Source: Yersinia proxima
Lineage (GTDB): Bacteria; Pseudomonadota; Gammaproteobacteria; Enterobacterales; Enterobacteriaceae
Assembly (NCBI RefSeq): GCF_902170785.1
Contig: NZ_CABHYG010000001.1
Location: 248,001-312,000 of the forward strand
DNA length: 64,000 nucleotides
Direction of reading: 5' to 3'
In this document: in pieces, positions 1,281 to 51,586 of the stretch
Layout: the number at the start of each line of letters is the position of its first letter
Numbering within the stretch: position 1 is the first letter of the stretch
Notes under the pieces: generated by a model
Databases searched by the model: none
Seen by the model: the letters and a program-made list of their open reading frames with translations, nothing else
What the model was told of the DNA's origin: nothing
Program-made: the position numbers and the translations under genes

Positions 1281-2112
1281 TTGAGGACAAGGGATCTGCT
1301 TGTACCAATCAAAGCAGTCGAGTCATCCGGGCGGCTCGAAGTCGCCGCTCGTTTACAGCAACGAACTACCGCGATTATGCACTTTGCCGTTCAGAGCGGC
1401 TTAATCGACTATAACCCCGCGCAAGAGATTGCCGGTGCGATTGCTACGGCGAAAAGACAGCATCGTGCTGCTCTGGAACTTAATCGCATTCCTGAATTAC
1501 TTCACCACATCGATCACTATTCTGGCAGGCCGTTAACTCGACTGGCAGTTGAACTCACTTTGTTGGTTTTCATCCGTTCAAGTGAGCTGCGTTTTGCCCG
1601 CTGGTCAGAAGTGGGTTTTGAAACGGCCATGTGGACGATTCCGGGTGAGCGTGAACCACTTGAAGGAGTTAAGCATTCTCAACGTGGTTCAAAGATACGG
1701 ACTCCTCATCTTGTTCCTTTGTCGCGGCAGGCTCTAGGCGTTTTGGAAAAGATCAAAAGCATGAGTGGGAATCGAGAGCTGATTTTTGTAGGCGATCACG
1801 GTCCGCGTAAAACCATGAGTGAGAATACGGTGAACAAGGCTCTGCGAGTGATGGGTTATGACACGGAAACGGAAGTATGTGGGCATGGTTTCAGGACGAT
1901 GGCGTGTAGTTCGTTGATTGAGTCGGGGTTGTGGTCGAGGGATGCGGTAGAGAGGCAGATGAGCCATCAGGAGCGCTGCTTATATTCATAAGGCGGAACA
2001 TCTTGGGGAACGGAGGTTGATGTTACAGTGGTGGGCGGATTATTTGGATGCGAATCGCAATGAGGCTATATCACCTTATCTGTATGCAAAGATTAATGAA
2101 CCATTATCCTGA
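1281..2112 (+). pseudogene. P4-type tyrosine integrase, N-truncated and frameshifted
   Basis: The frame from 1281 matches the core-binding and catalytic parts of P4-like prophage or island integrases. It has the catalytic Arg in FIRSSELRFARW, the lysine-containing beta region leading to HLVPLSRQA, and the HGFR box. The usual N-terminal arm-binding domain (about 150 residues) is absent; the frame starts in the DLLVPIKAVE segment. After MSHQER the frame shifts and stops at 1991. The expected C-terminus with the nucleophile Tyr (YIHKAEHLGERR, then WWADYLDANRN) continues in another frame to a TGA at 2110-2112. The junction lacks the residues that normally lie between QER and AAYIHKA, consistent with a small non-multiple-of-three deletion of about 14 bp. 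It cannot make an active recombinase. It marks this region as an integrated island; no tRNA attachment site is in the window. Confidence 0.85.
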
Positions 2113-2690: not shown

Positions 2691-3250
2691 ATGATCAGCT
2701 ATCAATATCTTGAAATGGCTTATCAAATGTCAACTTACCCCGGTGATATGAGACTGATGCGTAACCAGCATTTTATTTGTTATGGTCGATGCGGGAAGGT
2801 AGCCGAAATTGTTAGTGAAAAAAACATCAATGTTGAGGCGAAAAATAGTTGGCAGCCGTCTTTATCAGGTGGTGAAGAGATGTGTATTCATGTTGTTGTT
2901 CGTCAGGGACGGTTCACTATTTATTGGAAAGGCGACTACCACATCACAGTGTGTGCTCAAATAGTAAACACGCTGTAGATATGGCCTATCCTGCACGGTT
3001 TTAAGACCGTCTCATTTGCTGCCGTGGTTGATGAAGTTGAAAAAACACGTTCGGGAAAGTTAAGCAGACGCTAAGCAATGCACTACAGGAAGGTTTACCC
3101 CCTGAGTCCCGTCTTGCCGAGAGTATCGCTGAAAAGTGCCTCGAAAAATATGATGAATATTTATCGGAGACGTTTCTGGCGCGGGAGTATGGGTTACGGG
3201 TTTTTGACGTTGAGCGTGTGACAGAGTGGCTGCAGGGGCATTTATATTAA
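2691..3250 (+). pseudogene. Disrupted unknown gene directly upstream of the helicase-nuclease gene
   Basis: An open frame from 2691 ends at a TAG (2976-2978). The same frame carries on with coherent protein sequence (ILHGFKTVSFAAVVDEVEK) to about 3059. There a one-base shift is needed to reach the frame encoding LSNALQEGLPPESRLAESIA and ending REYGLRVFDVERVTEWLQGH, with TAA at 3248-3250. That stop is only 11 bases before the ATG of the helicase-nuclease gene, so this looks like the first gene of the same operon, now broken by one nonsense and one frameshift mutation. The products resemble nothing I recognise. The 2691 start is uncertain. Sequencing error is an alternative for the frameshift. 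Confidence 0.4.
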
Positions 3251-3261
3251 GGGGAAGAAGA

Positions 3262-6200
3262 ATGAGAAAAAGCTGGACTATAGAGGAAGATTATAAGCTG
3301 CTTACCTTGATACGTCAGCACTTTTCCGCGTTAGTCAGCCATAACCGGCTAAATGCCACAATGCCATTTAGCCAGCAGCTCCACGATGCATTTGACTCAC
3401 CTGATCGCGATGCCGCAGCATTGCTGTATCGACTCGAACAGGCAAAAATCCTGGGATTTGCCAGCCGTCCTAGAGGCGATCCCACTAAACAGCTGTTTCG
3501 CTGTCTGATAAACAATGATTTGGCGCTATACGATTACAGCCTCACCTTTCCCACTCTCAGAAAAGCATTGCATCCAGATACCGTTGCGGCCGCGCTAAAC
3601 TACTTCACTATTAGCAATCCGCACGAGCCACTGTCCAATACTATTAATGAAATCGCGACAACCTTGCATCTTGTCCCAATGCAGGTGGAAAAGATTCTGA
3701 TCGAAAGCGGCCAAATAACCATCAATAGCTATCGTAAGTGTGAACGTGTTGGCGAGAAAACTATCAATAATAATCTGCAAGATCTTATCTCCAGACAAAT
3801 TCCTGACGTAAATCTAGTTGAAGATATTAACGCTTGTCGCGCCCAAGTCTCTCAACTTTACCACGTACATGAACGTGATAGTGCTGAGGTCATCTTCAGT
3901 TCCGATGGCACGGGATTCGGTAAAAGCTATGGAGTGATTCAAGGGTATGTCGAATATCTGGAGCGCTTCGTCAAAACCCAAAAGCCAGATGATCTATTTC
4001 CCGAAGTTGGCTTTACCAACCTGCTGTTCATGTCGCCGCAAAAATCACAAATTGACCTAGACAGCAGCCAGAAAGATAAAATTCTTGCCTCTGGCGGCGA
4101 ATTCGTTTGCGTTCTCTCTCGTAAGGATATTGCCGACCTTGACTTTATGGACTGGGCTTCTGGCCTGAAAAACCGCGACCGCTATATTCAGTGGTACGAA
4201 GGGGCGAAAGGCAGCAAATATATCGGCGGTGCCATGCGTTCGCTCAATTATCATGTCTCACAAATTGATCGCTGTGAAGATCAGTTAAAAAAGCTAGCAA
4301 CATACGGTACTCAGGATACCAACTACGAAAGAGAAATTCTCGAAGAGCAGCTAAAAAACTGCCGTCACAGCATCCGCAATACGATTGAGTCGGCCTGTAA
4401 ATTGCTATTTGGACCAGATAGTGAAAAAACCTCCATTAAAGAGTACATTCGTCGCGGACTCTTGGCGCGCCAAGAGCGAATGCAAAACGCGGAAACAGCA
4501 CGAAAACCAGGAACGCCTGAACCTAAGATAAGCATACACGAAGTCTACTTCGAGCTTATCAAACAGGTATTGCCTTTCGAAGTTTGCCAGTACCGCCCGT
4601 CGGTGCTATTAATGACCACGAATAAGTTCGACACATCAACTTACCGGCTGGCGCCTCGTCAGCGGGGCGAAGGTGTGCGTTTTGAGTCCGTAGGTTTTGA
4701 TTTGCTGATTGGCGGCAAGCTGAAACCCAAAGATCCACAGATCAGCACCGTTGCGGCAGCCGGTCATGCCGGGCAGGTTGCCTATCTTCGAGACGAACAC
4801 TTCAGACGCAATCCAGACTGTACTTTTCGCCAGAAAAATATTCGCTTTACGGTGATCATTGATGAACTACATGAAGCCTATACCCGTCTTGAAGAAACAT
4901 GCCATGTGAAACTGATCACACAGGAAAATAACCTGGCACACGTTATTTCCGTCGCAGGACGTATTCACAATGCGGTACTCAGCCTGGAGCGACGGAACAA
5001 GCCAAAAGAAGCTCAAACGACCTTTGAGCAAGAGATGGTCAAATTCATCACCACCCTGCGCGACCTACTGGCAGAGAAGTGTGAACTTTCATCCGGTACG
5101 ACGCTGGGATCGATCCTTGAGATGTTTCGAGACCAGTTAGGGGCATTTGAAGTCAACGGCGATGCCGCCGAACGTATCATCTCAATCACCCGGAACGTGT
5201 TCAGTTTTAACCCCAAAATGTACGTCAATGAAGAGGGGCTGAAACGCATTCGTATGCGCAACAGCGAAGGCGACATAACGCGCACCGAGCTGTATTACGA
5301 AGTTGAAAATGATGCCAGTGACACCAATCCCACCTTGCACGACCTGTTCCAGTTGGTCTCCGTCATCCTTGCCGCCTGCTCTGAAATCACCAACCGACAC
5401 TTTAAGCGCTGGGTAAAGAATGGCGGCCAGGATAACTCCAGCAGCCAGAATACGCCTTTGGGCCAGTTTGTTGACGCAGCCAATAACGTAGCCGGCGTGG
5501 TGCGACATATCTTCGATCGTACCACCGATAAAAACTTGTTGATTGAGCATTTCTACACTTACCTGCAACCCAAAACCGTATTTACAATGACGCCGATAGC
5601 TGAACTCAATTACGTAAATAGGGGAGCCGAGCGCACAATTATTCTGGCGTTCGAAATGGATCTGGTACAAGAGTTGCCCGAAGTCATGCTGCTGCGTTTA
5701 TTAATTGGCACGCACAATAAAGTGATTGGGCTTAGTGCCACCAGCGGTTTCAGCCACACCAAAAACGGTAACTTCAATCGTCACTTCTTGGCACGCTATA
5801 GCCGTGACCTTGTATATCGGGTAGTTGAACGCGAAAAAGCAGATATTGATACGCTTAAAGCATTACGCGGGTTGAGGGCCAGTATCCGCAACGTCGATTT
5901 CACAGTATTTGATGATAACCAACTCAAATTGAGCGATCTCTACCAAAACTGCGAGCTCTTTCGTAGGACATATGACGACTTTTTCGAAGCCCTGAAGAAA
6001 CCGCTGGAATACGCCCTGAGAAGCTCTCACAAATCGCGCCAGTACCACCGGGAGTTAGAAGCGTTATTGCTTGCCGCCTACGAGGGTAAAAATAGCCTGA
6101 TTCTGTCACTTTCAGGTGCGTTTAAGAGGGCATTTATCAGCGCCTGGCGCACGAATCAATCCGACTGGCGTCAGCAGTACGGTATGTGCTCCCGGTGCGA

Positions 6201-7974
6201 TGGAAAAGATAACAGTAAAAAACATGATCAGATACTAACTTTTACCCCATTTAAAGGGCGTCACACGATTCATTTGGTCTTTTTCGATTCACCGTTAGCC
6301 AATGTCGAAGATATCAGGCAAGAAACTTATATCCAGAACAGCAACACCGTACTGGTATTTATGAGCAGCTACAAAAGTGCGGGCACCGGCCTCAACTACT
6401 TCGTTAAATACCATGACGGCGATATTAATGATACGAATGCATCGCGTCTGGATGTCGATTTTCAACGCTTAGTGCTCATCAACTCTTCGTTTTATAGTGA
6501 AGTAAAGGACAACAGCGGTAATCTCAATACATTACCCAACTATGTCACTGTACTTAAACACTACGCCGATGACGATATTACCGTCCACAAGCTGGCCGAT
6601 TTCAGCGTTAATTTCGCCCAAGGTGAAAATTATCGCCTGCTGATGGCCGAACATGATATGAGCTTGTTCAAAGTCGTCGTGCAGGCCGTAGGCCGTGTCG
6701 AGCGCCGCGACACTCTATTGAAAACAGAAATCTTTTTACCTCGCGACGTGTTCCGTAATGTCGCATTCCAGTTCGCCGCTATCAGTGAAGACATCGGCAA
6801 TGAGGTAGTATCAGAAAGCATGTCCTTGCTTAACCACCGCCTTATGGAGGAGTGCGAAAAACTGAGTCAGAGCCACTCATTTAGTGATACTGAACAGCGG
6901 CATGCGTTTGAACAGGCTATCGTAGCAAATGGTCGCCGCATCGATGCAGTTCACAAACGAGTCCTGAAAACCGACTGGATAAATCAGGTACGCGCCAGCA
7001 ATGTCGATTATCTCGCACTGTGTAATTTATTCCGCGATCCTGACTCCTTTTCCGACCCCCAACGATGGCAGGAAAAACTCCAGGCTAATCCCTTGTATGC
7101 CGACAATCGTCAAATGCAGTCCATCCACAACGCCTTGTTTATCGATCGTCGGCAAGGGAATCAAACTATTTTACTTTGCCACAAGCGCGGCTCGGATGGA
7201 CTTGCCCACAGAGATTATTCCGCCCTGTCGGACTTTGCTGGCGGTGCCAAAGCATATCAGCCAGAACTCACTATCTTTCCACAGTACAGAAACGATGTTG
7301 ATTTTACTTCCGGCAACGTGGTCGGTGAATTGATTACTGAATGCGACAGAATCCAAAAAACGGCATTCGAAAAATGGGTGCCAAACCCCAGACTGGTTCC
7401 ATTGCTCAAAGGTAATGTCGGCGAATTTCTTTTTGATAAGGTGCTGAAACATTATGGTGTGACACCTCTCACCGACCAACAAGTGTTTGAGCGCCTTGCT
7501 CCGTTGGTATATGAATTCTTTGACCGCTTTATTGAAGTGGGCGACGACCTACTCTGCATCGACGTTAAGCGCTGGGCGACACAGTTGGACGATTTGACAC
7601 GGGCAAAAGAAACGCTTGAGAAAAGCGACAACAAGATTTGCCAGATCCGAAATATCGCCAGCCAAAAGGCAGATACAGAAGGGCAGAAACAGATTCAGAC
7701 TGTGCTGGCAGGCCGTTATGAGCGCATTCGATTTGTCTATCTGAACGTTGCTTACAGCCTGAACCCCAATAATCTGATGTGGCAGGATAACGTGGATCAC
7801 ACGATCCACTACCTCAACCTATTGCAAACCGACTACCAGTATTATCAGCCAAAAAATCGAGAGAGCGGACGCGCTCTGGAAAGCTCGAAACTGCGCGCCA
7901 CGTTGGACATTAACCCGATGTTACGAACCCTACTGGGTATAGAAGGATTACCGACTAAAGGAAAAGATTCATGA
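3262..7974 (+). CDS. SF2 helicase fused to a C-terminal PD-(D/E)XK nuclease, candidate anti-mobile-element defence protein
   Basis: About 1570 residues. I chose the ATG at 3262, preceded by AAGGGGAAGAAG, over the in-frame GTG at 3226. Residues 1-200 form an N-terminal extension rich in short helices. Helicase motifs follow: Walker A GTGFGKS (216-222), Walker B DELH (534-537), SAT (825-827), a GTGLN segment and the motif VI-like QAVGRVERR (1141-1149). The spacing between motifs I and II is unusually long (about 310 residues). The C-terminus has the nuclease pattern E1388 (NVGEFLFDK), D1421 (FFDRFIEV) and D1434-V-K1436 (CIDVKRW). It therefore probably unwinds and cuts DNA. Its stop overlaps the next gene's start (ATGA). 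Helicase-plus-nuclease with a roughly 700-residue partner recalls the DdmDE plasmid-elimination pair by architecture only; this protein is longer and I have no alignment. Confidence 0.75.
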   Translation: MRKSWTIEEDYKLLTLIRQHFSALVSHNRLNATMPFSQQLHDAFDSPDRDAAALLYRLEQAKILGFASRPRGDPTKQLFRCLINNDLALYDYSLTFPTLRKALHPDTVAAALNYFTISNPHEPLSNTINEIATTLHLVPMQVEKILIESGQITINSYRKCERVGEKTINNNLQDLISRQIPDVNLVEDINACRAQVSQLYHVHERDSAEVIFSSDGTGFGKSYGVIQGYVEYLERFVKTQKPDDLFPEVGFTNLLFMSPQKSQIDLDSSQKDKILASGGEFVCVLSRKDIADLDFMDWASGLKNRDRYIQWYEGAKGSKYIGGAMRSLNYHVSQIDRCEDQLKKLATYGTQDTNYEREILEEQLKNCRHSIRNTIESACKLLFGPDSEKTSIKEYIRRGLLARQERMQNAETARKPGTPEPKISIHEVYFELIKQVLPFEVCQYRPSVLLMTTNKFDTSTYRLAPRQRGEGVRFESVGFDLLIGGKLKPKDPQISTVAAAGHAGQVAYLRDEHFRRNPDCTFRQKNIRFTVIIDELHEAYTRLEETCHVKLITQENNLAHVISVAGRIHNAVLSLERRNKPKEAQTTFEQEMVKFITTLRDLLAEKCELSSGTTLGSILEMFRDQLGAFEVNGDAAERIISITRNVFSFNPKMYVNEEGLKRIRMRNSEGDITRTELYYEVENDASDTNPTLHDLFQLVSVILAACSEITNRHFKRWVKNGGQDNSSSQNTPLGQFVDAANNVAGVVRHIFDRTTDKNLLIEHFYTYLQPKTVFTMTPIAELNYVNRGAERTIILAFEMDLVQELPEVMLLRLLIGTHNKVIGLSATSGFSHTKNGNFNRHFLARYSRDLVYRVVEREKADIDTLKALRGLRASIRNVDFTVFDDNQLKLSDLYQNCELFRRTYDDFFEALKKPLEYALRSSHKSRQYHRELEALLLAAYEGKNSLILSLSGAFKRAFISAWRTNQSDWRQQYGMCSRCDGKDNSKKHDQILTFTPFKGRHTIHLVFFDSPLANVEDIRQETYIQNSNTVLVFMSSYKSAGTGLNYFVKYHDGDINDTNASRLDVDFQRLVLINSSFYSEVKDNSGNLNTLPNYVTVLKHYADDDITVHKLADFSVNFAQGENYRLLMAEHDMSLFKVVVQAVGRVERRDTLLKTEIFLPRDVFRNVAFQFAAISEDIGNEVVSESMSLLNHRLMEECEKLSQSHSFSDTEQRHAFEQAIVANGRRIDAVHKRVLKTDWINQVRASNVDYLALCNLFRDPDSFSDPQRWQEKLQANPLYADNRQMQSIHNALFIDRRQGNQTILLCHKRGSDGLAHRDYSALSDFAGGAKAYQPELTIFPQYRNDVDFTSGNVVGELITECDRIQKTAFEKWVPNPRLVPLLKGNVGEFLFDKVLKHYGVTPLTDQQVFERLAPLVYEFFDRFIEVGDDLLCIDVKRWATQLDDLTRAKETLEKSDNKICQIRNIASQKADTEGQKQIQTVLAGRYERIRFVYLNVAYSLNPNNLMWQDNVDHTIHYLNLLQTDYQYYQPKNRESGRALESSKLRATLDINPMLRTLLGIEGLPTKGKDS

Positions 7975-10202
7975 TCCCTAATCTGAATGAGCTGACAGAT
8001 ACCCCGATTGCCCGCACCAATTTGCTCAAGCTTGAAGAAGATCAGCTGACCACCATCCAACGTCTATTAGCTCCAGTATCTAATATTTATACGATAGATT
8101 TTATGGTTCAGCGCTTTACTAAAGAGCGAAAAGAGAAATCCGCCGATTATCATGCGCGTATCCATCAGGAGGTCAAATCCTGTGTGCGGCAGAAGCTTGG
8201 ACTAGAGGGCGGGGAGGACGTAAAATATGAGCTACATCTTTTACCTACTTATGAGCACGTCTTTTTTTTCCTGGCGCCTGCTGCTGCACCGAATAGCCTA
8301 GCTCATCGGACTTTGGCAGAACGCATTGAAACTCTATGTCAGCAGCTCACCACTGAGAATTATGATCTGTCTCGCCTGATTCAGGGATTATTCAGCCTCC
8401 ATTTGAAAATGGTAATGCTGGAACAAGCCAGCGAGCGCTTTTCGGTATCGCCGACCTACTTCAACTCGACGCTCTATCTCAACGCTCGCCTGAGTCAACC
8501 CGTTATGCAAAAAAGCGGCACCGGGGTGATGGAAGCATTCGAGCTCGACATTTACGCCTCAGAATATAACGAACTCGCCTTTACCCTGCACAAACGAAAA
8601 TTTCTCGTCGAACCGGCGGATGAGTTGCACCTCTCTCTGGATGAGACCAGCGTGTGGTTTAATATCGATAATCGTCGACTCAAAGCCCGGCGCAAACTTG
8701 ATGCCCGAGATAATAAACTGGACTTTTTCCGTGAACGAAGTGGCTATGGCGAATGTCAGGCCTACACCTATAACGTGGTTATGAATGCCGCCCGAGAGCG
8801 CCTCAGTGAACTAGAGATCCCACACCAGCCTATCTCATTTCAGGCCACCCATGAGGTCAATCAGTTTGCTACCGACCTCGATCAACAGCTGGCTAATACG
8901 CTGTTGGTGGTTAATAACGGTGTCGAATTCAGCGCCACACAAGAAGCTTATTTCTTTGACGCATTAGCCATCCAGTTCCCCGGATATCAACTCTGGCCGT
9001 TGGCGTCGCTTAAACATTCTCAGCAAACCGGCTTTTCTGAGCTGCCTGCCAATACTTCTATTTTGGTGCTCAATGCGGTAGATGAAGAGCGGAGCAACAG
9101 CATCCGTCAGCAAGATAATGAATCTGTTGAGTACAGTGATTTCTATGCAGCCTTTGCCGACGCCCGAAAGCAATCTGAACTCAATTGGGATACTTATACC
9201 CAGCTTAAGCTGGGTCGATTGCAAGGGTGGCTAAATCAGCAACCGCTGCCTGTGGTCTTGCAAGGTATGAATATTGATCGCAAATTGTTGGATGAAATTG
9301 ATTTTATTAATGAACGCTTGGTAAGCGACCCTGCTCAATACGAAATCGAAATTACGAAATTTCACAGTCGCCTCAAGTCAGCAGTTACCCTGCTAAACAG
9401 TAAGGTACGCCGAACAAAAACCGAACTATGGTTTAAAGAGAGTTTAGTCAATCAGCATCGCATTCTACTGCCAGAACTGGCGGACGGGCACTATACCGCC
9501 TATGCGGTACGCAAAACGAAGAGCAATCATTCCCTGCTTGGGTATGTTGAACTGAAAGTAGAGCATGGCCAACTTTGGGTTGTTGATGCCGGGATCGCTG
9601 AAGGTAAATTAGATTGGTTATCGGTTGATCATCCCCCATTGGGACGGTTAAAAAAAATATTCGACAAAAGCTTCTATCTTTACGACCACACTGCAGATGT
9701 CCTGCTTACCACCTACAACAGCGTACGCGTGCCGCGCCTGATTGGCCCAGCGCAACTTAATATCGTAGATTCATACGTTTATCAGGAGCAAGAAAAAGCG
9801 CTGACAGAGCGTAAAGGGGATAAATTTAACGAGTACACCATCACCCGCTCAGCAAAACCGGACCAAAATGTATTGCCCTATCTGATATCACCTGGCCGTT
9901 CGAAACACGACCCGTTGACAAAAGCGCAAAAGATGAAGCATCACCATATTTACCTGCAACCGCATGAGAACGGAGTGTTTGTTCTGGTGAGCGATGCTCA
10001 GCCTACAAATCCTACTATTGCACGGCCTAACCTGGTGGAAAATCTGCTGATATGGGATGCCCGGGGCAAAGCCGTAGATGTATTTAACCACCCGTTAACT
10101 GGCGCTTACCTTAATAGCTTCACCTTGGATATGCTCAGGAGTGGCGAAAGTAGTAAGAGTTCGATTTTTGCAAAGCTTGCTCGTTTGATGGTGGAGAACT
10201 AA
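7971..10202 (+). CDS. Unrecognised 743-aa partner of the helicase-nuclease
   Basis: This gene is translationally coupled to the helicase-nuclease through an ATGA overlap, so the two products are almost certainly made together and probably work together. I do not recognise the family. It has no signal peptide or membrane helices and no obvious nuclease or P-loop motif. The middle part (about 300-380) alternates hydrophobic strands and helices (NTLLVVNNGVEFSATQEAYF, then SILVLNAVDEERSNS). A basic segment follows (LLNSKVRRTKTELWFKES), then a beta-rich region (GYVELKVEHGQLWVVDAG), and a C-terminus ending FAKLARLMVEN. Length and gene order would fit an Argonaute-like, catalytically inactive guide-binding protein of the DdmE or pPIWI-RE kind, but no PIWI catalytic residues can be pointed to. 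That is a hypothesis to test by structure prediction. A CCCCCA/TGGGGG hairpin follows the stop. Confidence 0.7.
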   Translation: MIPNLNELTDTPIARTNLLKLEEDQLTTIQRLLAPVSNIYTIDFMVQRFTKERKEKSADYHARIHQEVKSCVRQKLGLEGGEDVKYELHLLPTYEHVFFFLAPAAAPNSLAHRTLAERIETLCQQLTTENYDLSRLIQGLFSLHLKMVMLEQASERFSVSPTYFNSTLYLNARLSQPVMQKSGTGVMEAFELDIYASEYNELAFTLHKRKFLVEPADELHLSLDETSVWFNIDNRRLKARRKLDARDNKLDFFRERSGYGECQAYTYNVVMNAARERLSELEIPHQPISFQATHEVNQFATDLDQQLANTLLVVNNGVEFSATQEAYFFDALAIQFPGYQLWPLASLKHSQQTGFSELPANTSILVLNAVDEERSNSIRQQDNESVEYSDFYAAFADARKQSELNWDTYTQLKLGRLQGWLNQQPLPVVLQGMNIDRKLLDEIDFINERLVSDPAQYEIEITKFHSRLKSAVTLLNSKVRRTKTELWFKESLVNQHRILLPELADGHYTAYAVRKTKSNHSLLGYVELKVEHGQLWVVDAGIAEGKLDWLSVDHPPLGRLKKIFDKSFYLYDHTADVLLTTYNSVRVPRLIGPAQLNIVDSYVYQEQEKALTERKGDKFNEYTITRSAKPDQNVLPYLISPGRSKHDPLTKAQKMKHHHIYLQPHENGVFVLVSDAQPTNPTIARPNLVENLLIWDARGKAVDVFNHPLTGAYLNSFTLDMLRSGESSKSSIFAKLARLMVEN

Positions 10203-10241
10203 CACGGCCGTAACCCTACGGCTTCCCTCATCACGAATTCT

Positions 10242-10455: not shown

Positions 10456-10956
10456 ATGAATAAGCAAAATTATGCGCATGGAATGCGGGTGGTTATTCGT
10501 GATGCAGAGTGGCGCATTCGCCGGGCGGATGACAGCGGAGATGGTGGCAGCCTGCTGACCTGTGATGGCATTTCGGAGCTGGTACGCGGTAAAGAAGGGC
10601 TGTTTCTGACAAAGCTGGAACAAAAAGTCGAGATTCTCGATCCAGCAAAGACAAATCTGGTTGAAGATGAGTCAGCCAATTACCAGGCGGCTCAGTTGTA
10701 CATAGAGAGCCAACTACGCCAACGCGTACCGACTGACAGCAAAGTCCATTTTGGGCATCAGGCTGCGATGGATTCAATGCCATTTCAGCTTGATCCCACG
10801 CGTATGGCGCTGGCGCAGCCGCGCCAGCGGATATTAATTGCTGATGCGGTAGGACTGGGTAAAACGCTTCTTCATGGGGATGTCCTCATGTGGCTTATGA
10901 AGGCATTACTAACATCGGGGTGTACTAATCAACGGGGAGCAGGTCATATGTACTGA
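10456..10956 (+). pseudogene. N-terminal fragment of an SNF2-type helicase (DrmD/HepA-like)
   Basis: The first 130 residues read like the N-terminus of large SNF2-family helicases found in defence loci, for example DrmD of DISARM. There is a small beta domain (GMRVVIRDAEWRIRRADD), the linker FGHQAAMDSMPFQLDP and the Walker A segment ILIADAVGLGKT. The normal continuation (LEAGIL and the remaining roughly 800 residues) is missing. Directly after GLGKT the reading frame passes into unrelated sequence and stops at 10956. It is a 3'-truncated relic and cannot be an ATPase. A SNF2 family call is solid from the GLGKT context; the DrmD label is my inference. Confidence 0.65.
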
Positions 10957-11670: not shown

Positions 11671-12666
11671 ATGGGGTTGTATAATATTCTTGATAAAAAC
11701 CTTACGGAATTAAAAGAGACATCGTATACCCTGGAAGGGTTACAGGAACGATATGATTTACAGGAAGCCATCAAGAAGAACATTAAAATTCTTGCTCCTG
11801 ATTGTTTGATAATTTCTGAAGAGTTTTCCGACTGGGAAGACAGTAAGCGCAGAATTGATTTACTTGCTATAGATAAACAAGCAAATCTTGTCGTGATTGA
11901 ACTCAAACGGGATGATATTGGCGCCCATATGGAATTGCAGGCATTAAGGTATGCAGCAATGATCTCAACAATGAGTTTTGCTAAAGCATGTGAATGCTAT
12001 GAGAAGTATTTGCAAAAGCATGATATGGATATTAATGCTAAATCTGCCATTCTTGATTTCGTTGAACTTGATGAGACCGAGTTAGTAGATTTTGGTAAAG
12101 ATATTCGTATTGTCCTTGCTTCTGCTAATTTTGGGAAAGAGCTGACGACTACGGCAATATGGCTTAGAGATAAAGGTGTCGATATTAGATGTGTCCGACT
12201 TACTCCATATAATTTTAATGGTGAAATATTAATTAACGCAGAGCAAATTATCCCTGTCCCCGAACTGGAGGATTATCAGGTTCGATTCAGAGAAAAACGT
12301 ACCGAACAAATTGTAAGCAGCCAAAAATCTGAAAAAGATTACTCTGAGTATAAATATAACGGAGTGATATATAATAAGCGTAAGCTCGCCCTTGAGCTTT
12401 TCACTGATTGGATAAATAAGCATAAACCTGCAGATTTTAATGAACTCAAAAATAAGTTGGGTGCAGTATTAAAAAGTAGAACGATTGCTTTAGTGGATCA
12501 GATATCAAAAGAAAGAGAAAATAGATTCCATATTCAAGAGGATTGTTTAATCGAATTGCCGTCTGGGGAGCTTATTGCTATCTCTAATCAGTGGGGTATA
12601 GGGAATATCAACAGGTTACTTGACTTTGTTCGACGTGATGGTTTTATCATCGAAAAGGCTGAATAA
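11671..12666 (+). CDS. NucS/DUF91-like PD-(D/E)XK nuclease
   Basis: A 331-residue soluble protein. Residues 45-85 hold a clear PD-(D/E)XK core: IISEEFSDWED, RRIDLLAIDKQ with D63, and VVIELKRD with E77-L-K79, followed by the helix HMELQALRYAAMISTMSF. This arrangement is that of DUF91/NucS-type endonuclease-like proteins, common in defence islands and phage-rich loci. The C-terminal part (about 220-331) is a separate lysine-rich region probably used for substrate or partner binding. The ATG at 11671 follows AAAGGAATGATAG. It stands alone, with a terminator hairpin at 12710. Codon use is AT-rich, like an acquired gene. A nuclease fold is well supported; substrate and role are unknown. Confidence 0.75.
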   Translation: MGLYNILDKNLTELKETSYTLEGLQERYDLQEAIKKNIKILAPDCLIISEEFSDWEDSKRRIDLLAIDKQANLVVIELKRDDIGAHMELQALRYAAMISTMSFAKACECYEKYLQKHDMDINAKSAILDFVELDETELVDFGKDIRIVLASANFGKELTTTAIWLRDKGVDIRCVRLTPYNFNGEILINAEQIIPVPELEDYQVRFREKRTEQIVSSQKSEKDYSEYKYNGVIYNKRKLALELFTDWINKHKPADFNELKNKLGAVLKSRTIALVDQISKERENRFHIQEDCLIELPSGELIAISNQWGIGNINRLLDFVRRDGFIIEKAE

Positions 12667-16132: not shown

Positions 16133-16897
16133 ATGGCAGCAGCAAATCACTGGATGCGGGATCAACTGTTAGTTGCTTTCACATTGTATAGTCAAATTCC
16201 CTTTGGCAAATTGCACTCCAGGAATCCTGATATTATTCATTACGCCGCATTAATTGGCAGAACGCCGTCGGCATTGGCGATGAAATTAGTTAATTTCGCT
16301 AGTCTTGATCCCTATATTATCGATTCTGGTCGCAAAGGGTTAAGCGGAGCTTCTAAGGCTGATCGTGCATTGTGGTTGGAGATGAATGAGAATACCGAAG
16401 GTTTTGAACGGCAATGTCAGCAGGTGATGAACCAGTTAGAAATACCCGTGACCAAGCTATTTGATAGTGGTATTAAAGATTTCAGTGGTAAAGAAAAGAC
16501 TACTATTATTAAGGCGCGGGTTGGGCAGCAGTTATTTCGCAAAAACGTATTACATGTTTATGAGAACCGCTGCTGCATTACCGACTTAGAAGAACCTATA
16601 TTATTAGTCGCCAGCCATATTCGCCCCTGGAGCCACGGTACAGAGCATCGGCTTAATCCAAGTAATGGCCTATGCTTGTCGAATTTACATGATCGAGCTT
16701 TTGATCAGGGATTAATAACCTTTAATGAGCATCTGGAAATGGTGTTATCTCCCCAGATCAAAAAACTTAAAAGTAGTATCAGTGAAGAGAATTTCGTTAA
16801 GTATGAAGGGCGAAAACTGCGGTTACCGGTACAGTTTTTTCCTGATGAGGGGCAGATGGCCTATCACCGTCAGAATATTTTCTTAAGCGGCAAATAG
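16133..16897 (+). CDS. HNH endonuclease domain protein
   Basis: A 254-residue protein. The N-terminal half (to about 150) is a helical domain that includes GRTPSALAMKLVNFASLDP, seen in many restriction-related HNH proteins. The C-terminal half holds an HNH_2-type nuclease: VYENRCCITDLEEPILLVAS with HIRPWS, then LNPSNGLCLSNLHDRAFDQG. The His of ASHIRPW and the N/H pair of GLCLSNLHDRAFD form the expected metal-binding core. It is a stand-alone gene without a methyltransferase, so it may restrict modified DNA or act on incoming DNA; this is inferred from relatives. The start at 16133 is an ATG with weak upstream signal. Confidence in the fold is high and in the role is low. Confidence 0.85.
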   Translation: MAAANHWMRDQLLVAFTLYSQIPFGKLHSRNPDIIHYAALIGRTPSALAMKLVNFASLDPYIIDSGRKGLSGASKADRALWLEMNENTEGFERQCQQVMNQLEIPVTKLFDSGIKDFSGKEKTTIIKARVGQQLFRKNVLHVYENRCCITDLEEPILLVASHIRPWSHGTEHRLNPSNGLCLSNLHDRAFDQGLITFNEHLEMVLSPQIKKLKSSISEENFVKYEGRKLRLPVQFFPDEGQMAYHRQNIFLSGK

Positions 16898-44265: not shown

Positions 44266-44297
44266 AAAATAGCGGCCTCAATTCAAGGCTGCTATTT
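44266..44297. terminator. Bidirectional terminator between dhaM and the glycosyltransferase gene
   Basis: AAAATAGCGGCC and GGCTGCTATTT arms around TCAATTCAA form a near-symmetric hairpin with A- and T-rich flanks on both strands, at the convergent ends. It overlaps the 3' end of the minus-strand gene. Confidence 0.65.
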
Positions 44298-45633
44298 GAG
44301 GAATTAAGTGACTTAGCGGTGTTAATATCTGGTTTTTCCAGTTATAGCGCTCTTCTATTAATGTAGCGCTTGCCAGCCTGATGTCCGCTATTTCACGTTC
44401 TGTTAATTGGCATACATGATGTATCACTTCTGCTAAATCTATGGCATCCCCCGGAATATGCAGAAATCCATCTATGCCGTGCTCAACTTGTTCTCGTAGG
44501 CCACCTGAGTCGGCGACAACTAATATTGCCCCCTGCTGTCTGGCTAACCAGCGCGACTCCATAGGAATTAATCCATTCGGTTCATTTTCGGCAGACAGAA
44601 CACACACCCGCGTATTACGCCACTGAATCAGGCAGGCCATCAGTTCGCGATCAAATGAATTTATAACCGAAGCGTGTATATCAAGCTGACTGGCTAATAC
44701 TGATAACTCCGGCAACACAGGATCACTGACGATAACGGCGTGAATATCATCACCCAGATAACTGGCTGCCGTTAGTAACAAATCATAGCGCTTATAATGC
44801 ACACCTCTCCCAAGCGTAATAGCCAGCGGATTTTCGAGTGGTATTCCGTGAGCGGATAGCGTGTCGCAAATCTCTTGCTCACTGCGTATCCGAAACCATG
44901 AGTCGTTAATATTTACCCCTGCTGGAACCGATACCATGGTATGAGGATCAGCACCATATTGTGAAACTAAATGGTCGGCCAGAAAATTACTGATAGTGCC
45001 CAGCTTGATATTAGGATCAATCTTTGCCCATTGAACAGGCAATGATTCAGCCATAAGCCTGTCAGGGTTAGGTAATGGCATTTCATGATTGAATGCAGTG
45101 CCATGAGACACATAGATAACTTTTAATTTTTCGCCTTCAACAGCGGTATGTAAGCTGACAATTAAAGGCGTAAATGAAAATGGCAGCTCATGGCAAAATG
45201 CCAGAGTAATATCGTAGTTCTCACTAATATCAATAATCTTTGCTGCTGCGGCGGCAGAGGATATCTTCCAGTTTTGTAAGTTGCCGAGGAAAGCATCACC
45301 GTAAGGCCATAAACATCCAGTTTCGTTACCTAATGTCATGTTGGGTACTGTCGAGAATGAACCCCCTATCTTATGAATTTCTTCTATATAATGGGAGTGG
45401 CAATCAATATCAAAAAAGGCATTGTATTTATTGTATGCAATCTCAATAAAATGTGGTTCCAGGCTGATATTATGGGCGGATAAAAAATCTATCACCTCAG
45501 GTAGCGCCTGAATTTGTCCTCTGATATAAGAGCCGACACCCCCAACGAAGATTTGGATACCTTCTGTGGATAAATGGATAACGCCTATTTTTAACGTGCT
45601 TTTTTTGTGAATGGGAAATATGTTTTCTTGCAT
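44278..45633 (-). CDS. GT4-type glycosyltransferase of the putative biosynthetic cluster
   Basis: A 451-residue GT-B glycosyltransferase. The N-terminal acceptor lobe has IGVIHLSTEGIQIFVGGVGS (GGVGSYI is the usual glycine loop). The C-terminal donor lobe has NPLAITLGRGVHYKRYDLLL, ENEPNGLIPMESRWLARQQG (the acidic E-x7-E-type donor motif) and VADSGGLREQVEHGIDGFLH. It is the last gene of the six-gene cluster and less AT-rich than the rest, 42 bases after the carbamoyltransferase. No sugar-nucleotide synthesis genes accompany it. Acceptor and donor are unknown. Confidence 0.82.
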   Translation of the reverse strand: MQENIFPIHKKSTLKIGVIHLSTEGIQIFVGGVGSYIRGQIQALPEVIDFLSAHNISLEPHFIEIAYNKYNAFFDIDCHSHYIEEIHKIGGSFSTVPNMTLGNETGCLWPYGDAFLGNLQNWKISSAAAAAKIIDISENYDITLAFCHELPFSFTPLIVSLHTAVEGEKLKVIYVSHGTAFNHEMPLPNPDRLMAESLPVQWAKIDPNIKLGTISNFLADHLVSQYGADPHTMVSVPAGVNINDSWFRIRSEQEICDTLSAHGIPLENPLAITLGRGVHYKRYDLLLTAASYLGDDIHAVIVSDPVLPELSVLASQLDIHASVINSFDRELMACLIQWRNTRVCVLSAENEPNGLIPMESRWLARQQGAILVVADSGGLREQVEHGIDGFLHIPGDAIDLAEVIHHVCQLTEREIADIRLASATLIEERYNWKNQILTPLSHLIPQIAALN

Positions 45634-45674
45634 ATAAAACCTCGCAATTTTAACGAGAAATATTATTTGTTATT

Positions 45675-47372
45675 TTATTTCTTCGATACCTTATAATTTT
45701 TGATAAACAAAACATCTAAACCACAATTCAAAAATAGATCAATTGCATCTTTGGGTGTTTCTACTATTGGCATACCTTTAATATTGAGTGAAGTATTCAG
45801 CAATAGAGGTATTCTAGTCTTTTCGAAAAAAGAAGTTATCAATTTATGGAATTTTCTGTTGATATCTTTTTTAACAGTTTGAACACGAGCACTTCCATCA
45901 ACATGGACTATTGAAGGAAGGTCCGTTCGATATTGTTCTTTTACATAGGCAATGAATAACATGTAGTCACTGTCATGATTTAAGTGGAAATATCCCTGCA
46001 TTTTTTCATGTAAAATCGCGGGCGCAAAAGGTCGGAAATCCTCGCGAAACTTCACATTGGCATTAATGTGATCTTTCATCTGTATGCTGCGAGGATCGGC
46101 AAGAATACTTCTGTTACCCAATGCGCGCGGCCCGAATTCAGACTCTCCCTGGAACCATGCAATGACCTGACCAGATGCAATAGAGTCAGCTGCTATGACT
46201 TCAATATTTTCGCAGTAAGTGTATTCAATCTTATCGCTGTGTTTTTCCAGTTCAGTTATTACACTACTATCATTATAGTTCTTACCAAAAAATGGCGAAC
46301 CCGTATGTTTGACTCGTTCTTTTTTAAGGACTTCCAGCCAACCATAATAACAACACCCGATGGAAAGACCATTGTCACCCGCCGCAGGTTGAATATATAA
46401 GTTATCAAAATTACAGCCATTAATGAGCTTTTCATTCGCAGTGGCATTTAACGCAACCCCTCCGGCATAAGCGAAGTTCTTCATAGGATGAAGTTGATAG
46501 TAATAGTTAAACAGGTAGAATAAAGCCTCTTCAAGTTTGGTTTGTGCCCAATAGGCCAAGTCTGCATAATATTGGAAGTTATTCCGAAAATGTGCTGGAT
46601 CAGTATTTAACAATGGATCAATATTTGTCCACCAGTCATTCCGTAATATTATTTTTCCTGAATTGAAAAAGAACGGTTGCCAATCAATCGCATTTGCTCT
46701 GCCATAGGGCGCCAGACCCATTAATTTGCCCGCACAGTCAAGTTCACCAAAAATATATAAGGCAATGCCTTCGTAAAATTCACCGATAGAATTTTCTATT
46801 TCCCATGTGGAAACGGGATAGATCTTTCTATCCTTTCGATTAACCCAGCGGGAAAAGTCTTTAAAGATGGGCAGCATTTTGCCATTTTGATACACGTAGT
46901 AACTGCATGTTTCCCAATAACGGTAACGATTATTATAATGAATATTATTAGAGCCGCAGGCATTATCATTAATATCATTACAGTTATCTACGCTGCCACC
47001 ATGCCCATCAATAACCACAACTCCCATATCATCAAAAGGAGATGTGCCTACTGCGCTATAAGCATGTGCCAGGTGATGTGAAAGTGTTACCACAGGAACC
47101 ATAGGAGGTAAGATCCTATTTTTACGGTATTCTAATTGCTCACTAAAGATTGGATTATGCGAATTTTGTTCTACGATTAATGTCAGATCATTATATTCAA
47201 TACCCGCAGCGTCTAAACAATATTGAATAGTATAATTATCATTAAAACCATCATGTTTTACTCTTGATATTCTTTCTTTTTCTATTGCAAATATAATCTC
47301 TCCATCTTTCATTAAACAGCTTGAACCATCATGGGATAGGGCAGTGCCAAGAATGTAAATGGGTTTATGCAT
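45675..47372 (-). CDS. NodU/CmcH/TobZ-family O-carbamoyltransferase
   Basis: A 565-residue protein that should transfer a carbamoyl group from carbamoyl phosphate, via carbamoyl-AMP, to a hydroxyl of a sugar or antibiotic. The N-terminal Kae1-like domain begins YILGTALSHDGSSCLMKDGE and has the metal-binding LSHHLAHAYSAVGTSP (about residues 98-113) and VVVIDGHGGSVDN. The YrdC-like domain ends with ESEFGPRALGNRSILADPRS and KFREDFRPFAPAIL. It is full length for the family. It sits between the GMC oxidoreductase and the terminal glycosyltransferase, all on one strand with short gaps. Confidence 0.92.
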   Translation of the reverse strand: MHKPIYILGTALSHDGSSCLMKDGEIIFAIEKERISRVKHDGFNDNYTIQYCLDAAGIEYNDLTLIVEQNSHNPIFSEQLEYRKNRILPPMVPVVTLSHHLAHAYSAVGTSPFDDMGVVVIDGHGGSVDNCNDINDNACGSNNIHYNNRYRYWETCSYYVYQNGKMLPIFKDFSRWVNRKDRKIYPVSTWEIENSIGEFYEGIALYIFGELDCAGKLMGLAPYGRANAIDWQPFFFNSGKIILRNDWWTNIDPLLNTDPAHFRNNFQYYADLAYWAQTKLEEALFYLFNYYYQLHPMKNFAYAGGVALNATANEKLINGCNFDNLYIQPAAGDNGLSIGCCYYGWLEVLKKERVKHTGSPFFGKNYNDSSVITELEKHSDKIEYTYCENIEVIAADSIASGQVIAWFQGESEFGPRALGNRSILADPRSIQMKDHINANVKFREDFRPFAPAILHEKMQGYFHLNHDSDYMLFIAYVKEQYRTDLPSIVHVDGSARVQTVKKDINRKFHKLITSFFEKTRIPLLLNTSLNIKGMPIVETPKDAIDLFLNCGLDVLFIKNYKVSKK

Positions 47373-47402
47373 AATTAATATCCTTATTAATTTATGATAG
47401 AG

Positions 47403-48902
47403 TCAGTTAAGTATATAAGCGAGGCGCCGAGACAGTGCGAGTGTCGTTAATGACGGGTTGGCAGCACCGGGGCGTGGAAATGTACTAGGGCCGATAGCAA
47501 ATAAATTACTTATTTGGTTAAACTCATGATTTTCATTTAATACAATGCCTAAAGGGAGTGTACTACTTTCATGGTTTTCAGTGCCTAGGGGGCTAATCCA
47601 CGTAGTTGGGACATTGTAATTGACGACTCTTGATGGTGAGCGAAATTGGCTGTGTACATCTCCCATTGTGCGGGCATGTATGATAAATCCGTCATCAAAA
47701 TTTAAAGGTTTAAATGGGATGTTTGTATTTTTACATATTTCTCGCCAGAATATATTTAATTCATACTTTTCTTTTTTTATCAATATATTGTCTGTGTGAA
47801 TTAAATTACAACTAATATCCAATGGTATTGACTCATGCTGTTTTTTTATAGTGATACTTCCTTGGGTTGATGGGATTTGTTCACCCATTGCCCACGCCTC
47901 TAATTCAATACCAAAATCTGAATGGCCGATTGTAAAAAATAAATTGAATCTTTCATCAGATATGCTATGGCTAAAAAATATAGTATCAGGATTACTCTCA
48001 ATTAACTGACTTATTGTAGATGGAACATTATCATATTCAAATGTAACATTAAATCCTTGAACAATATGGTCAACAAGGCCTGTTATTTTTTTCTCCATAA
48101 AATTTCCCGTATCATAAAGTGCTTGAGTGGCTAAGCGTGAATTTTCTATTGTCCCTAAAGCAAGCACACATTTATCTGATAATATGTGATGTACCTCATT
48201 GGATTCTATATTTCTTAACTTGGCTCCAACACATTTTCCATTTTTAATAATTAGTTCTTCTGCTTCATATCCGGAGATGATAATTGGTGGCTTTTCGAGT
48301 TTGTTATCTTCTTTCCAATAAGATAAAGGAGAATAGGCTTCCCAGCGATCAGCATCTTCAAGTGTTCTGGTCGCTTGAGGTACGATCTGAAATTCAAAAT
48401 GAGAAAGTTTGAACCGATAATCTGCATTATAGTTTTTTTCAGCCCACGCCAATATGTCAGACTGTACCAGGGTGTAAAGAGGAGGCCCTCCTAACCAGTT
48501 TTCTGTTAAATCACTGACAATATTTGCTGGCCAATACCTGAGTGTATCGGATGCTATTGGCAAGATAACGCCATGCCAATAGAGTGAGCGGCCGCCGACT
48601 CTTCGTCGCAAACATGTTCCTTTTGAAAAGTGAGGTTCACTTAACGATCGCCATGAGCGGTAGGCATATTTATCGGATTGTTCATTCTTCCAAAATTCAT
48701 TAGCTCGTAGATATTCTTCTCCTGCATTTATATGATTGCAATCTTCAGCCGGTCCAGCTTCTATAACAATATTCTCTACTTCTCTGGTGTGTAAATGTTT
48801 AGCTAACTCTAAACCTGACATACCACCACCGAGTATAAGAATGTTAACTTTGTCAGGAATATCAGCTATATTTTTTGATAGACTCGTCGATACGATACTC
48901 AT
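47403..48902 (-). CDS. GMC-type FAD-dependent oxidoreductase
   Basis: A 499-residue flavoenzyme. The FAD-binding Rossmann motif is NILILGGGMSGLELAKHLHT followed by VIEAGP. The GMC substrate entrance is RRRVGGRSLYWHGVILP. The C-terminal signature is NLFAIGPSTFPRPGAANPSL, with an upstream His (IIHARTMGDVHSQF) in the usual active-site region. The family oxidises alcohols, including sugar primary alcohols; paromamine 6'-dehydrogenases of aminoglycoside pathways are members. It likely oxidises a hydroxyl on the cluster's product. AT-rich codon use. 30 bases separate it from the carbamoyltransferase. Confidence 0.82.
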   Translation of the reverse strand: MSIVSTSLSKNIADIPDKVNILILGGGMSGLELAKHLHTREVENIVIEAGPAEDCNHINAGEEYLRANEFWKNEQSDKYAYRSWRSLSEPHFSKGTCLRRRVGGRSLYWHGVILPIASDTLRYWPANIVSDLTENWLGGPPLYTLVQSDILAWAEKNYNADYRFKLSHFEFQIVPQATRTLEDADRWEAYSPLSYWKEDNKLEKPPIIISGYEAEELIIKNGKCVGAKLRNIESNEVHHILSDKCVLALGTIENSRLATQALYDTGNFMEKKITGLVDHIVQGFNVTFEYDNVPSTISQLIESNPDTIFFSHSISDERFNLFFTIGHSDFGIELEAWAMGEQIPSTQGSITIKKQHESIPLDISCNLIHTDNILIKKEKYELNIFWREICKNTNIPFKPLNFDDGFIIHARTMGDVHSQFRSPSRVVNYNVPTTWISPLGTENHESSTLPLGIVLNENHEFNQISNLFAIGPSTFPRPGAANPSLTTLALSRRLAYILN

Positions 48903-48925
48903 TGTAAACCCTCCGCTAAAAAATT

Positions 48926-50368
48926 TTATTTAGAAATAAGTGGAGTTGCATTCAAATTACATGATGTGTCTTGCAGTTTATGTATAAAATCTTGCCATGG
49001 TCCTTTAGGGAATTTTGAATTAACCAGAAGTTTATTACTGGATAATCGTATTTTAATTTCTGTTTCTCCGGCGGCCAGCATACGCATCCATTCAAATAAC
49101 TGTTGAGCTGCTTCATTAGGACTGTCTGGTCTGACTTTTATATGATAATATTCTGAACCATAAAATTCGGTGAAAGCTGTGTACTCTGTAACCGCGCAAG
49201 GAATGCTTGCAATAGCGGCAAGGGCTGGGCCTAAGCCGACACTTTCAACATTTTCCACATTAGGAGTAAATAAAACGGCACCTGATAATGCATGACAAAT
49301 TATAAGCAAATCAACTTCATCTAAATACCATTTATTGTCTTCACTCTTATATGTTTGAAGCGGAACCTCATCTAAAAAAATGATGTCATTAGTAAGAAGT
49401 AATTCATCCACCTGGACTTTTAGACAATGAGCGTACTCAGGATCCTCATTCATATTTCCAAATATAAGTAATTTCGGTGGAGGGAATCCTTTATTTTTAT
49501 AAATATTCAGTAATGCACTGAAAACATTAATGGAAATTTCAATACCTTTTACTCGGAATACCCGAACGGGAACAATAATGATTGATGAGCCTGCAGGGAT
49601 ATTATGCTGATTTAAAAACTCACTATGAATATCATTAAATCCAGATTTATCCATACAGGGAAGAATATTAGGAATAACATTTGCTATCAGTTCCGTTGGG
49701 TAATGTTTGGATTCATTTGCCAAAGCCTCAGAGGCAACTATCCATTTAGTGTAGGTATTATTCTGTGGTATCGGTGTTAAGATATTTGGTTTTTGGGGAT
49801 ACAATCTTTCAGTCTGTTCATAAATAGCATAACTACCAAAAAGATCATGATCCCAGAAAATAACACCTCCATAACCCTTTTTTTTCCAATAATTCTTGGC
49901 AACATTATGAATAGCCAAATTAACTGGAACAGCATCTGAAAGCGTCATGTTTAAAGCAAAAAGCCAGTCAACTTCATTGTCTTCAAGCCAATTAAGGAAA
50001 TAGTTTTGATAGTATTCTGAAATTAAAAGTATAATTTTCTTAAGTTCTATTATTTCTGATTCTTTCAACGATTCATATTGGGCAACTTTACTTCTTATTT
50101 TAGTAAAATCATTGCCAAAGTCTTCGTTTCTTATTTCATATTGATTGATAGAACTAACTTTCATCCATGTTGGATAGTACGATTCATGACTACCATTAGG
50201 GAAGAAATTAACTTTATCTGGTCGCCATGAAAACCCAAGATCTGTTGGTATTTCATTAATTATAATATTATTGTTTATTGCTATTTCAGCTACATTTCTG
50301 AATATGGTCAATAGACCACTGGTAGGAAGGCCGTCTCCTGATATAATCGCCCATTTCATTTTTTTCAT
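48926..50368 (-). CDS. Probable GT-B glycosyltransferase
   Basis: A 480-residue protein beginning MKKMKWAIISGDGLPTSGLL. That N-terminal strand-loop is typical of GT-B enzymes, with a following long acceptor lobe (DEVDLLIICHALSGAVLFTP). The donor lobe contains IIIVPVRVFRVKGIEISINV (the R-x4-K donor phosphate site) and ENVESVGLGPALAAIASIPC with CAVTEYTAFTEFYGSE. It resembles the GT4 family but is divergent. It is the second glycosyltransferase of the cluster, 23 bases before the GMC gene. Substrates unknown. Confidence 0.7.
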   Translation of the reverse strand: MKKMKWAIISGDGLPTSGLLTIFRNVAEIAINNNIIINEIPTDLGFSWRPDKVNFFPNGSHESYYPTWMKVSSINQYEIRNEDFGNDFTKIRSKVAQYESLKESEIIELKKIILLISEYYQNYFLNWLEDNEVDWLFALNMTLSDAVPVNLAIHNVAKNYWKKKGYGGVIFWDHDLFGSYAIYEQTERLYPQKPNILTPIPQNNTYTKWIVASEALANESKHYPTELIANVIPNILPCMDKSGFNDIHSEFLNQHNIPAGSSIIIVPVRVFRVKGIEISINVFSALLNIYKNKGFPPPKLLIFGNMNEDPEYAHCLKVQVDELLLTNDIIFLDEVPLQTYKSEDNKWYLDEVDLLIICHALSGAVLFTPNVENVESVGLGPALAAIASIPCAVTEYTAFTEFYGSEYYHIKVRPDSPNEAAQQLFEWMRMLAAGETEIKIRLSSNKLLVNSKFPKGPWQDFIHKLQDTSCNLNATPLISK

Positions 50369-50384
50369 TATTTAACTCCTTATG

Positions 50385-51584: not shown

Positions 51585-51586
51585 AG

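What the first reader, a model, noticed from the sequence alone, without database searches (positions are those of the whole stretch)
3262..10202. Two-gene helicase-nuclease module that may be an undescribed defence system
A 1570-residue protein joins SF2 helicase motifs (GTGFGKS, DELH, SAT, QAVGRVERR) to a C-terminal PD-(D/E)XK nuclease. It is coupled by ATGA overlap to a 743-residue protein of no recognisable family. Both are intact while almost everything around them in the island is broken, which suggests selection for function. The organisation resembles DdmD/DdmE (helicase-nuclease plus Argonaute-like partner), but this helicase is several hundred residues longer and has an extra N-terminal region of about 200 residues before Walker A. 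It may be a distant branch or a new system.
Basis: partly seen in the sequence, partly recalled or inferred. Interest (0 to 1): 0.88.

Follow-up and report, generated by a model that had tools for sequence, protein, structure and literature searches.

The report
ApsAB anti-plasmid system, new host
The two genes are an intact copy of ApsAB, a plasmid-destroying bacterial defence system already described in E. coli in 2024; what is added here is that it sits behind the wreck of a second defence system (Shango) and that its partner protein is predicted to fold like an Argonaute.

Summary
The pair is real and correctly read: window 3262-7974 (1570 aa) and 7971-10202 (743 aa), ATGA overlap. It is not undescribed. 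It is ApsAB, the anti-plasmid system of Zongo et al. 2024 (PMC11096173): the published ApsA motifs and ApsB guide-pocket residues are all present, and three E. coli copies whose numbering equals the published one are 89-91% identical to it. Additions: (1) the predicted ApsB fold matches DdmE and long Argonautes over residues 12-743, although the paper says PIWI is not conserved and the DdmE fold differs; (2) the C-terminal half of ApsA ranks twelve DdmD entries first in one of two fold comparisons, and its nuclease domain aligns to DdmD by sequence; (3) a broken sngC (Shango helicase) lies just upstream, and in Brenneria, Budvicia, Erwinia and some E. coli the pair are genes 4-5 of a five-gene Shango-ApsAB array. 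On the protein tree Shango changed state at least three times while apsAB stayed whole (dN/dS 0.10-0.13). Verdict: already known system, new host, modest interest.

The parts
3262..7974 (+). apsA orthologue, 1570 aa: SF2 helicase with C-terminal PD-(D/E)XK nuclease (an upstream GTG at 3226 would add 12 residues)
   Evidence: named by comparison with PMC11096173
7971..10202 (+). apsB orthologue, 743 aa: predicted Argonaute fold with MID guide-pocket motif
3913..3927 (+). Walker A GFGKS, residues 218-222 (published GFGKS 218-222; K221A abolishes activity)
4861..4872 (+). motif II DELH, residues 534-537 (published 532-535; E533A abolishes activity)
5734..5742 (+). SAT motif, residues 825-827 (published 823-825)
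6682..6708 (+). QAVGRVERR motif, residues 1141-1149 (published QAVGRVER 1140-1147)
7522..7569 (+). PD-(D/E)XK active site D1421...D1434-V-K1436 (published D1420...D1433-V-K1435)
9195..9437 (+). ApsB MID motif Y409, K413, Q431, K489 (C-terminal N743 at 10197-10199), same numbering as published
2727..3247 (+). broken 3' remnant of sngC (Shango helicase), in more than one frame; its last sense codon ends 14 bases before the apsA ATG
1281..1991 (+). tyrosine integrase fragment of the island (N-terminal part missing)

Best explanation
This is an intact chromosomal ApsAB anti-plasmid system. Proposed working: ApsB, an Argonaute-fold protein, holds the 5' end of a short nucleic-acid guide in its MID pocket (Y409, K413, Q431, K489, C-terminal N743), pairs it with plasmid DNA without cutting, and brings in ApsA, whose SF2 helicase motor moves on and unwinds the DNA while its C-terminal PD-(D/E)XK domain degrades it, so that plasmids are lost. 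Shown by others in E. coli: both genes are needed, plasmids are actively eliminated, helicase and MID mutants are dead, the nuclease mutant is partly dead. Shown here: orthology, intact motifs, purifying selection, predicted-fold resemblance to DdmD and DdmE. Inferred: the guide, recruitment of ApsA by ApsB, activity of this particular copy.
Against: The ST38 sequence itself was not obtained; the L012 type is taken as it from numbering. No guide has been shown for ApsB, here or in the parts of the paper that I read. Foldseek gave no hit at E <= 0.001 for ApsA 800-1570 and no DdmD in the 50 rows it showed; the VIA alignments to DdmD have rmsd near 20, i.e. they hold domain by domain. The A5 and A4 profiles found no DdmD or DdmE among PDB sequences, and ApsB against DdmE by sequence gave nothing. 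Activity in this host is untested, and a same-genus genome keeps only the 3' end of apsB at the matching site.
Confidence: 0.93

Rival explanations
1. The pair is DdmDE itself, in a long form.
For: Same two-gene design; predicted folds rank DdmE or DdmD first; nuclease domains alignable.
Against: ApsB and the DdmE-like protein of L022 show no sequence similarity; against the true DdmD of L022 (pair of 1194 and 659 aa; PDB matches 9.2e-83 and 2.4e-21) only 104 columns of ApsA align, in the nuclease; the paper puts ApsA-like and DdmD-like proteins in separate parts of one tree.
Confidence: 0.1
2. The pair are genes 4 and 5 of a five-gene Shango variant and work with SngABC, so that the window copy is a half-system left over from decay.
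For: Full-length sngABC lie directly upstream on the same strand, within 15 bases of apsA, in L011, L013, L026, L027, L032; 21 of 157 E. coli genomes that match the junction query keep at least 80% of it.
Against: ApsAB was active when expressed alone in MG1655. 13 of 24 scan loci have no Shango detected near apsA (12 of them with apsB). Shango changed state at least three times on the tree while apsAB stayed intact under dN/dS 0.10-0.13. Shango is described as a three-gene system with anti-phage activity.
Confidence: 0.07
3. The window copy is already dead: intact frames, but silent or newly decaying because its promoter went with Shango.
For: The upstream operon is wrecked; no sigma-70-like site on the + strand between 2000 and 3400 by consensus scan; a congener keeps only the last part of apsB.
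Against: All catalytic and pocket residues intact; low dN/dS; the ST38-like copies, whose type was shown to work, also keep only about 170 bases of sngC. dN/dS averages over the whole branch, so recent death is not excluded.
Confidence: 0.15

Closest known systems
ApsAB (Zongo et al. 2024, PMC11096173; abstract, outline, sections 9, 11 and 36 and passages of others read)
   Same: Gene order, length, helicase, nuclease and MID motifs; 88-92% protein identity to the intact E. coli copies fetched
   Different: A host other than E. coli; the sngC remnant is longer than in the ST38-like copies; activity untested
DdmDE of Vibrio cholerae and Lactobacillus casei (PMC12409362, passages; PDB 9ezy, 8u3k, 9ix4)
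   Same: SF2 helicase + PD-(D/E)XK protein with an Argonaute-fold partner; VIA ranks these entries first for both models, Foldseek for ApsB
   Different: ApsA about 380 residues longer; no ApsB-DdmE sequence similarity
Long prokaryotic Argonautes (e.g. Thermus thermophilus)
   Same: Predicted fold aligned over residues 4-743; MID pocket motif
   Different: No acidic residue where the first catalytic aspartate is expected (R514 invariant); of the tetrad at most D572 remains (read from secondary structure and conservation, not from a superposition)
Shango, SngABC (PMC10250203, passages)
   Same: Often directly upstream; remnant of SngC in the window
   Different: A separate three-gene anti-phage system; none of its three models matches ApsA or ApsB

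Membership tests
ApsAB | ApsA with SF2 motifs GFGKS, DELH, SAT, QAVGRVER | tested here: met
   invariant core in 22 of 22
ApsAB | PD-(D/E)XK site D...DVK in the ApsA C-terminus | tested here: met
ApsAB | ApsB MID-like motif Y[X]3K[X]nQG[X]nK and C-terminal N | tested here: met
   Y409, K413, Q431, G432, K489, N743 in 23 of 23
ApsAB | apsA-apsB operon order | tested here: met
   ATGA overlap; 22 of 24 scan loci have apsB next
ApsAB | eliminates plasmids | not testable with these tools
   shown for the ST38 copy and for E. coli copies of 92/92% and 28/25% identity to it in PMC11096173
DdmDE | partner protein is a DdmE by sequence | tested here: not met
   hhalign A4 against the DdmE-like protein of L022: probability 0.3; no DdmE among PDB sequences with the A4 profile
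DdmDE | helicase-nuclease with DdmD fold | tested here: met
   C-terminal half only, and by one of two programs: 12 best VIA rows are DdmD, Foldseek showed none in 50 rows; nuclease by sequence; N-terminal half not folded
DdmDE | partner has a DdmE-like Argonaute fold | tested here: met
   other rows come close (12.6 for 8xih_B, titled only 'protein-DNA complex', 12.1 for Thermus Argonaute), so DdmE is best or nearly tied
long pAgo | MID and PIWI (RNase H-like) domains | tested here: met
long pAgo | DEDX catalytic tetrad | tested here: inconclusive
   not superposed; conservation leaves at most D572
Shango | sngA, sngB and sngC present | tested here: not met
   window holds only a broken sngC 3' end; no SngA or SngB match at 1e-3

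The most novel reading that the evidence does not exclude
ApsB is a full, slicing-dead Argonaute of the DdmE type, so that ApsAB and DdmDE are two branches of one guide-directed machine (against the published statement that their partner proteins differ and that the PIWI fold is not conserved in ApsB); and in Enterobacterales ApsAB travels as the plasmid-directed arm of a five-gene Shango-ApsAB array that covers phages and plasmids together, of which the plasmid arm is repeatedly the one that survives.
Probability: 0.45. Interest if true: 0.5.

Novelty: already known. Interest (0 to 1): 0.25.

Why it matters
It closes a finding that looked like a new defence system and names it correctly. No model in the Pfam, NCBIfam and PADLOC (2023) copies used here matched it, and the gene is annotated 'hypothetical protein' in the 50 E. 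coli records listed, so it is easily rediscovered. The fold result gives a testable correction to the published description of ApsB, and the Shango-ApsAB array suggests a combined phage and plasmid defence locus whose two halves decay at different rates.

Tried and rejected
Undescribed system: rejected. Family libraries: no meaningful hit for either protein, nor for the E. coli L011 copies (only weak hits of E 0.03-0.04 for ApsB in NCBIfam). PDB by sequence: single sequences nothing useful, profiles nothing useful. Viral contigs: 58 stretches matched a pattern, none a relative. Phages: no match for ApsA. Plasmids: one E. coli record, a 1.0 Mb 'plasmid', for ApsA and ApsB, plus a short ApsB piece in Oceanisphaera. 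N-terminal region of ApsA: weak Myb-like hit in 1 of 8 tested (E 0.061, below Pfam's cut-off, among other equally weak ones), not relied on. Promoter in the sngC remnant: none on the + strand by consensus scan. The sngC remnant as chance: rejected, 74-82% nucleotide identity to intact operons. pPIWI-RE was not tested separately. Host name: not settled; flanking window DNA has only 77- and 127-base matches in the best E. coli records shown, so it is not E. coli.

Rows left out: alignments A3-A5 use 22 (ApsA) or 23 (ApsB) sequences; left out are near-copies or the same contigs (L024, L025, L031, L028, L034; L002-L006 are shorter pieces of L017-L021), partial loci (L044, L046; L021 for ApsA), the DdmD locus L022 and all E. 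coli or plasmid loci L008-L016 (not accepted for structure jobs). The tree uses 18 loci. L029 was kept in the tree as 'none' although it has under 600 bases upstream of apsA, and L012 and L024 as 'remnant' on nucleotide similarity or a short stretch.

Full report
What is there. The window holds two complete + strand genes, 3262-7974 (1570 aa) and 7971-10202 (743 aa), overlapping by ATGA. Its family also holds G177, whose matching contig has the length of the Xenorhabdus griffiniae contig of L028, so the host is of the Enterobacterales; its flanking DNA is not that of E. coli. The first gene has one match in that genome. Of 25 genomes of its genus searched, 2 match the second gene: the window's own, complete, and G399, a fragment.

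It is a known system. Pfam, NCBIfam and PADLOC give nothing meaningful for either protein. Relatives led to the answer: 147 of 5426 E. coli genomes carry DNA like the first gene (144 of them over at least 80% of the query), 'hypothetical protein' in the 50 records listed. In two E. coli loci the pair directly follows three genes; in L011 PADLOC names them SngA, SngB, SngC (Shango), and those of L013 are 94-99% identical. A search for Shango papers returned PMC11096173, which describes ApsAB, an anti-plasmid system of E. coli ST38 with a helicase-nuclease protein and an Argonaute-like partner. The published ApsA numbers (GFGKS 218, DELH 532, SAT 823, QAVGRVER 1140, DVK 1433) are exactly those of three of the six E. 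coli proteins tested, L012, L014 and L016; the window protein has them at 218, 534, 825, 1141 and 1434. The published ApsB residues Y409, K413, Q431, K489 and N743 have identical numbers in the window and are invariant in 23 of 23 ApsB. Identity of the window pair to L012 is 88.8/89.6% and to L011 91.7/91.5%. The paper reports that both genes are needed, that K221A, E533A and ApsB K413A abolish activity while K1435A has a partial effect, that several but not all plasmid types are destabilised, and that eight phages were unaffected.

Shango. In the window a broken sngC end lies at 2727-3247, its last sense codon 14 bases before apsA; nucleotide identity to intact operons is 74-82%. Of the 24 loci of the genome scan, 3 have full-length sngABC directly upstream on the same strand (L026 Brenneria, L027 Budvicia, L032 Erwinia), 1 has a divergent sngABC on the other strand (L042 Pseudomonas), 5 have an sngC remnant (L023, L024, L025, L028, L031), 13 have none detected at that cut-off, 1 has too little upstream DNA to tell (L029) and 1 is a short partial match (L046). 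In E. coli, 157 of 5426 genomes match a 4-kb query that spans the sngC-apsA junction and 21 keep at least 80% of it; among the 60 rows shown, 8 cover the whole query (one of them, H75, split by an IS1), 47 start 144-169 bases before the end of sngC, 4 match the sngC part alone and 1 is a short piece of apsA. On a tree of 18 ApsA+ApsB pairs the remnant state needs at least 3 changes, forced by well supported branches, and intact and remnant lineages are interspersed. Because remnants sit at the same junction, the changes are read as losses of Shango. The paper notes Shango in some of the islands; it is the only held paper with both words, and its two mentions of Shango do not describe one operon.

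State of the window copy. dN/dS against seven relatives is 0.109-0.131 and 0.098-0.114. In a same-genus genome (L049) there is a stretch 66% identical to the window's integrase region and only the last part of apsB (372 bases matching window 9840-10211), followed two bases on by DNA matching window 13169 onward: the system can be lost in this genus. No sigma-70-like site was found on the + strand upstream of apsA, so what drives transcription of the window copy is unknown.

Mechanism. Most likely ApsB holds a guide and finds plasmid DNA, and ApsA is the motor and nuclease, as described for DdmDE (PMC12409362, passages: DdmE binds DNA guides and recruits an autoinhibited DdmD dimer, which moves along and cuts plasmid DNA). 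A review, PMC12904381 (passages), gives the same picture but appears to exchange the names DdmD and DdmE in one sentence. Guide and recruitment are inference for ApsAB.

Verdict. Already known system; new host; two modest additions (predicted fold of ApsB; five-gene Shango-ApsAB array with repeated loss of the Shango half).

Noticed in passing
window 10456-10956 +: N-terminal fragment (166 aa) of a DrmD/DpdE-like SNF2 helicase (NF038317, 2.8e-9, profile 5-139 of 1021).
   Followed up: partly
window 11671-12666 +: Intact 331-aa protein of the PADLOC candidate defence family PDC-S11 (4.4e-111) with weak NucS-like nuclease similarity.
   Followed up: partly
window 16133-16897 +: Intact HNH endonuclease related to phosphorothioated-DNA restriction enzymes (PADLOC HNH 7.7e-130; NF045808 1.1e-17, below its cut-off).
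   Followed up: no
window 44278-52453 -: Mostly AT-rich cluster (27-40% GC from 45 to 53 kb): a glycosyltransferase and a second weak one, a carbamoyltransferase, an FAD-dependent GMC-like oxidoreductase (weak), an MFS transporter and a 2OG-Fe dioxygenase; looks like a horizontally acquired small-molecule pathway of unknown product.
   Followed up: partly
L049 9849-10220 (same-genus genome): Solo 3' end of apsB (95% identical) next to DNA that matches window 13169 onward: ApsAB lost there.
   Followed up: partly
E. coli hits H30, H60, H75, H99: apsA, or the sngC-apsA stretch, is split by extra DNA; an IS903B or IS1 transposase is listed under the match for H30, H75 and H99 and rbbA for H60, which recalls the IS inactivation selected in the published evolution experiments.
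   Followed up: no
L042 3763-9549 and 9926-15957: Pseudomonas locus with a divergent Shango operon back to back with ApsAB: the two systems also meet outside Enterobacterales, in another arrangement.
   Followed up: no
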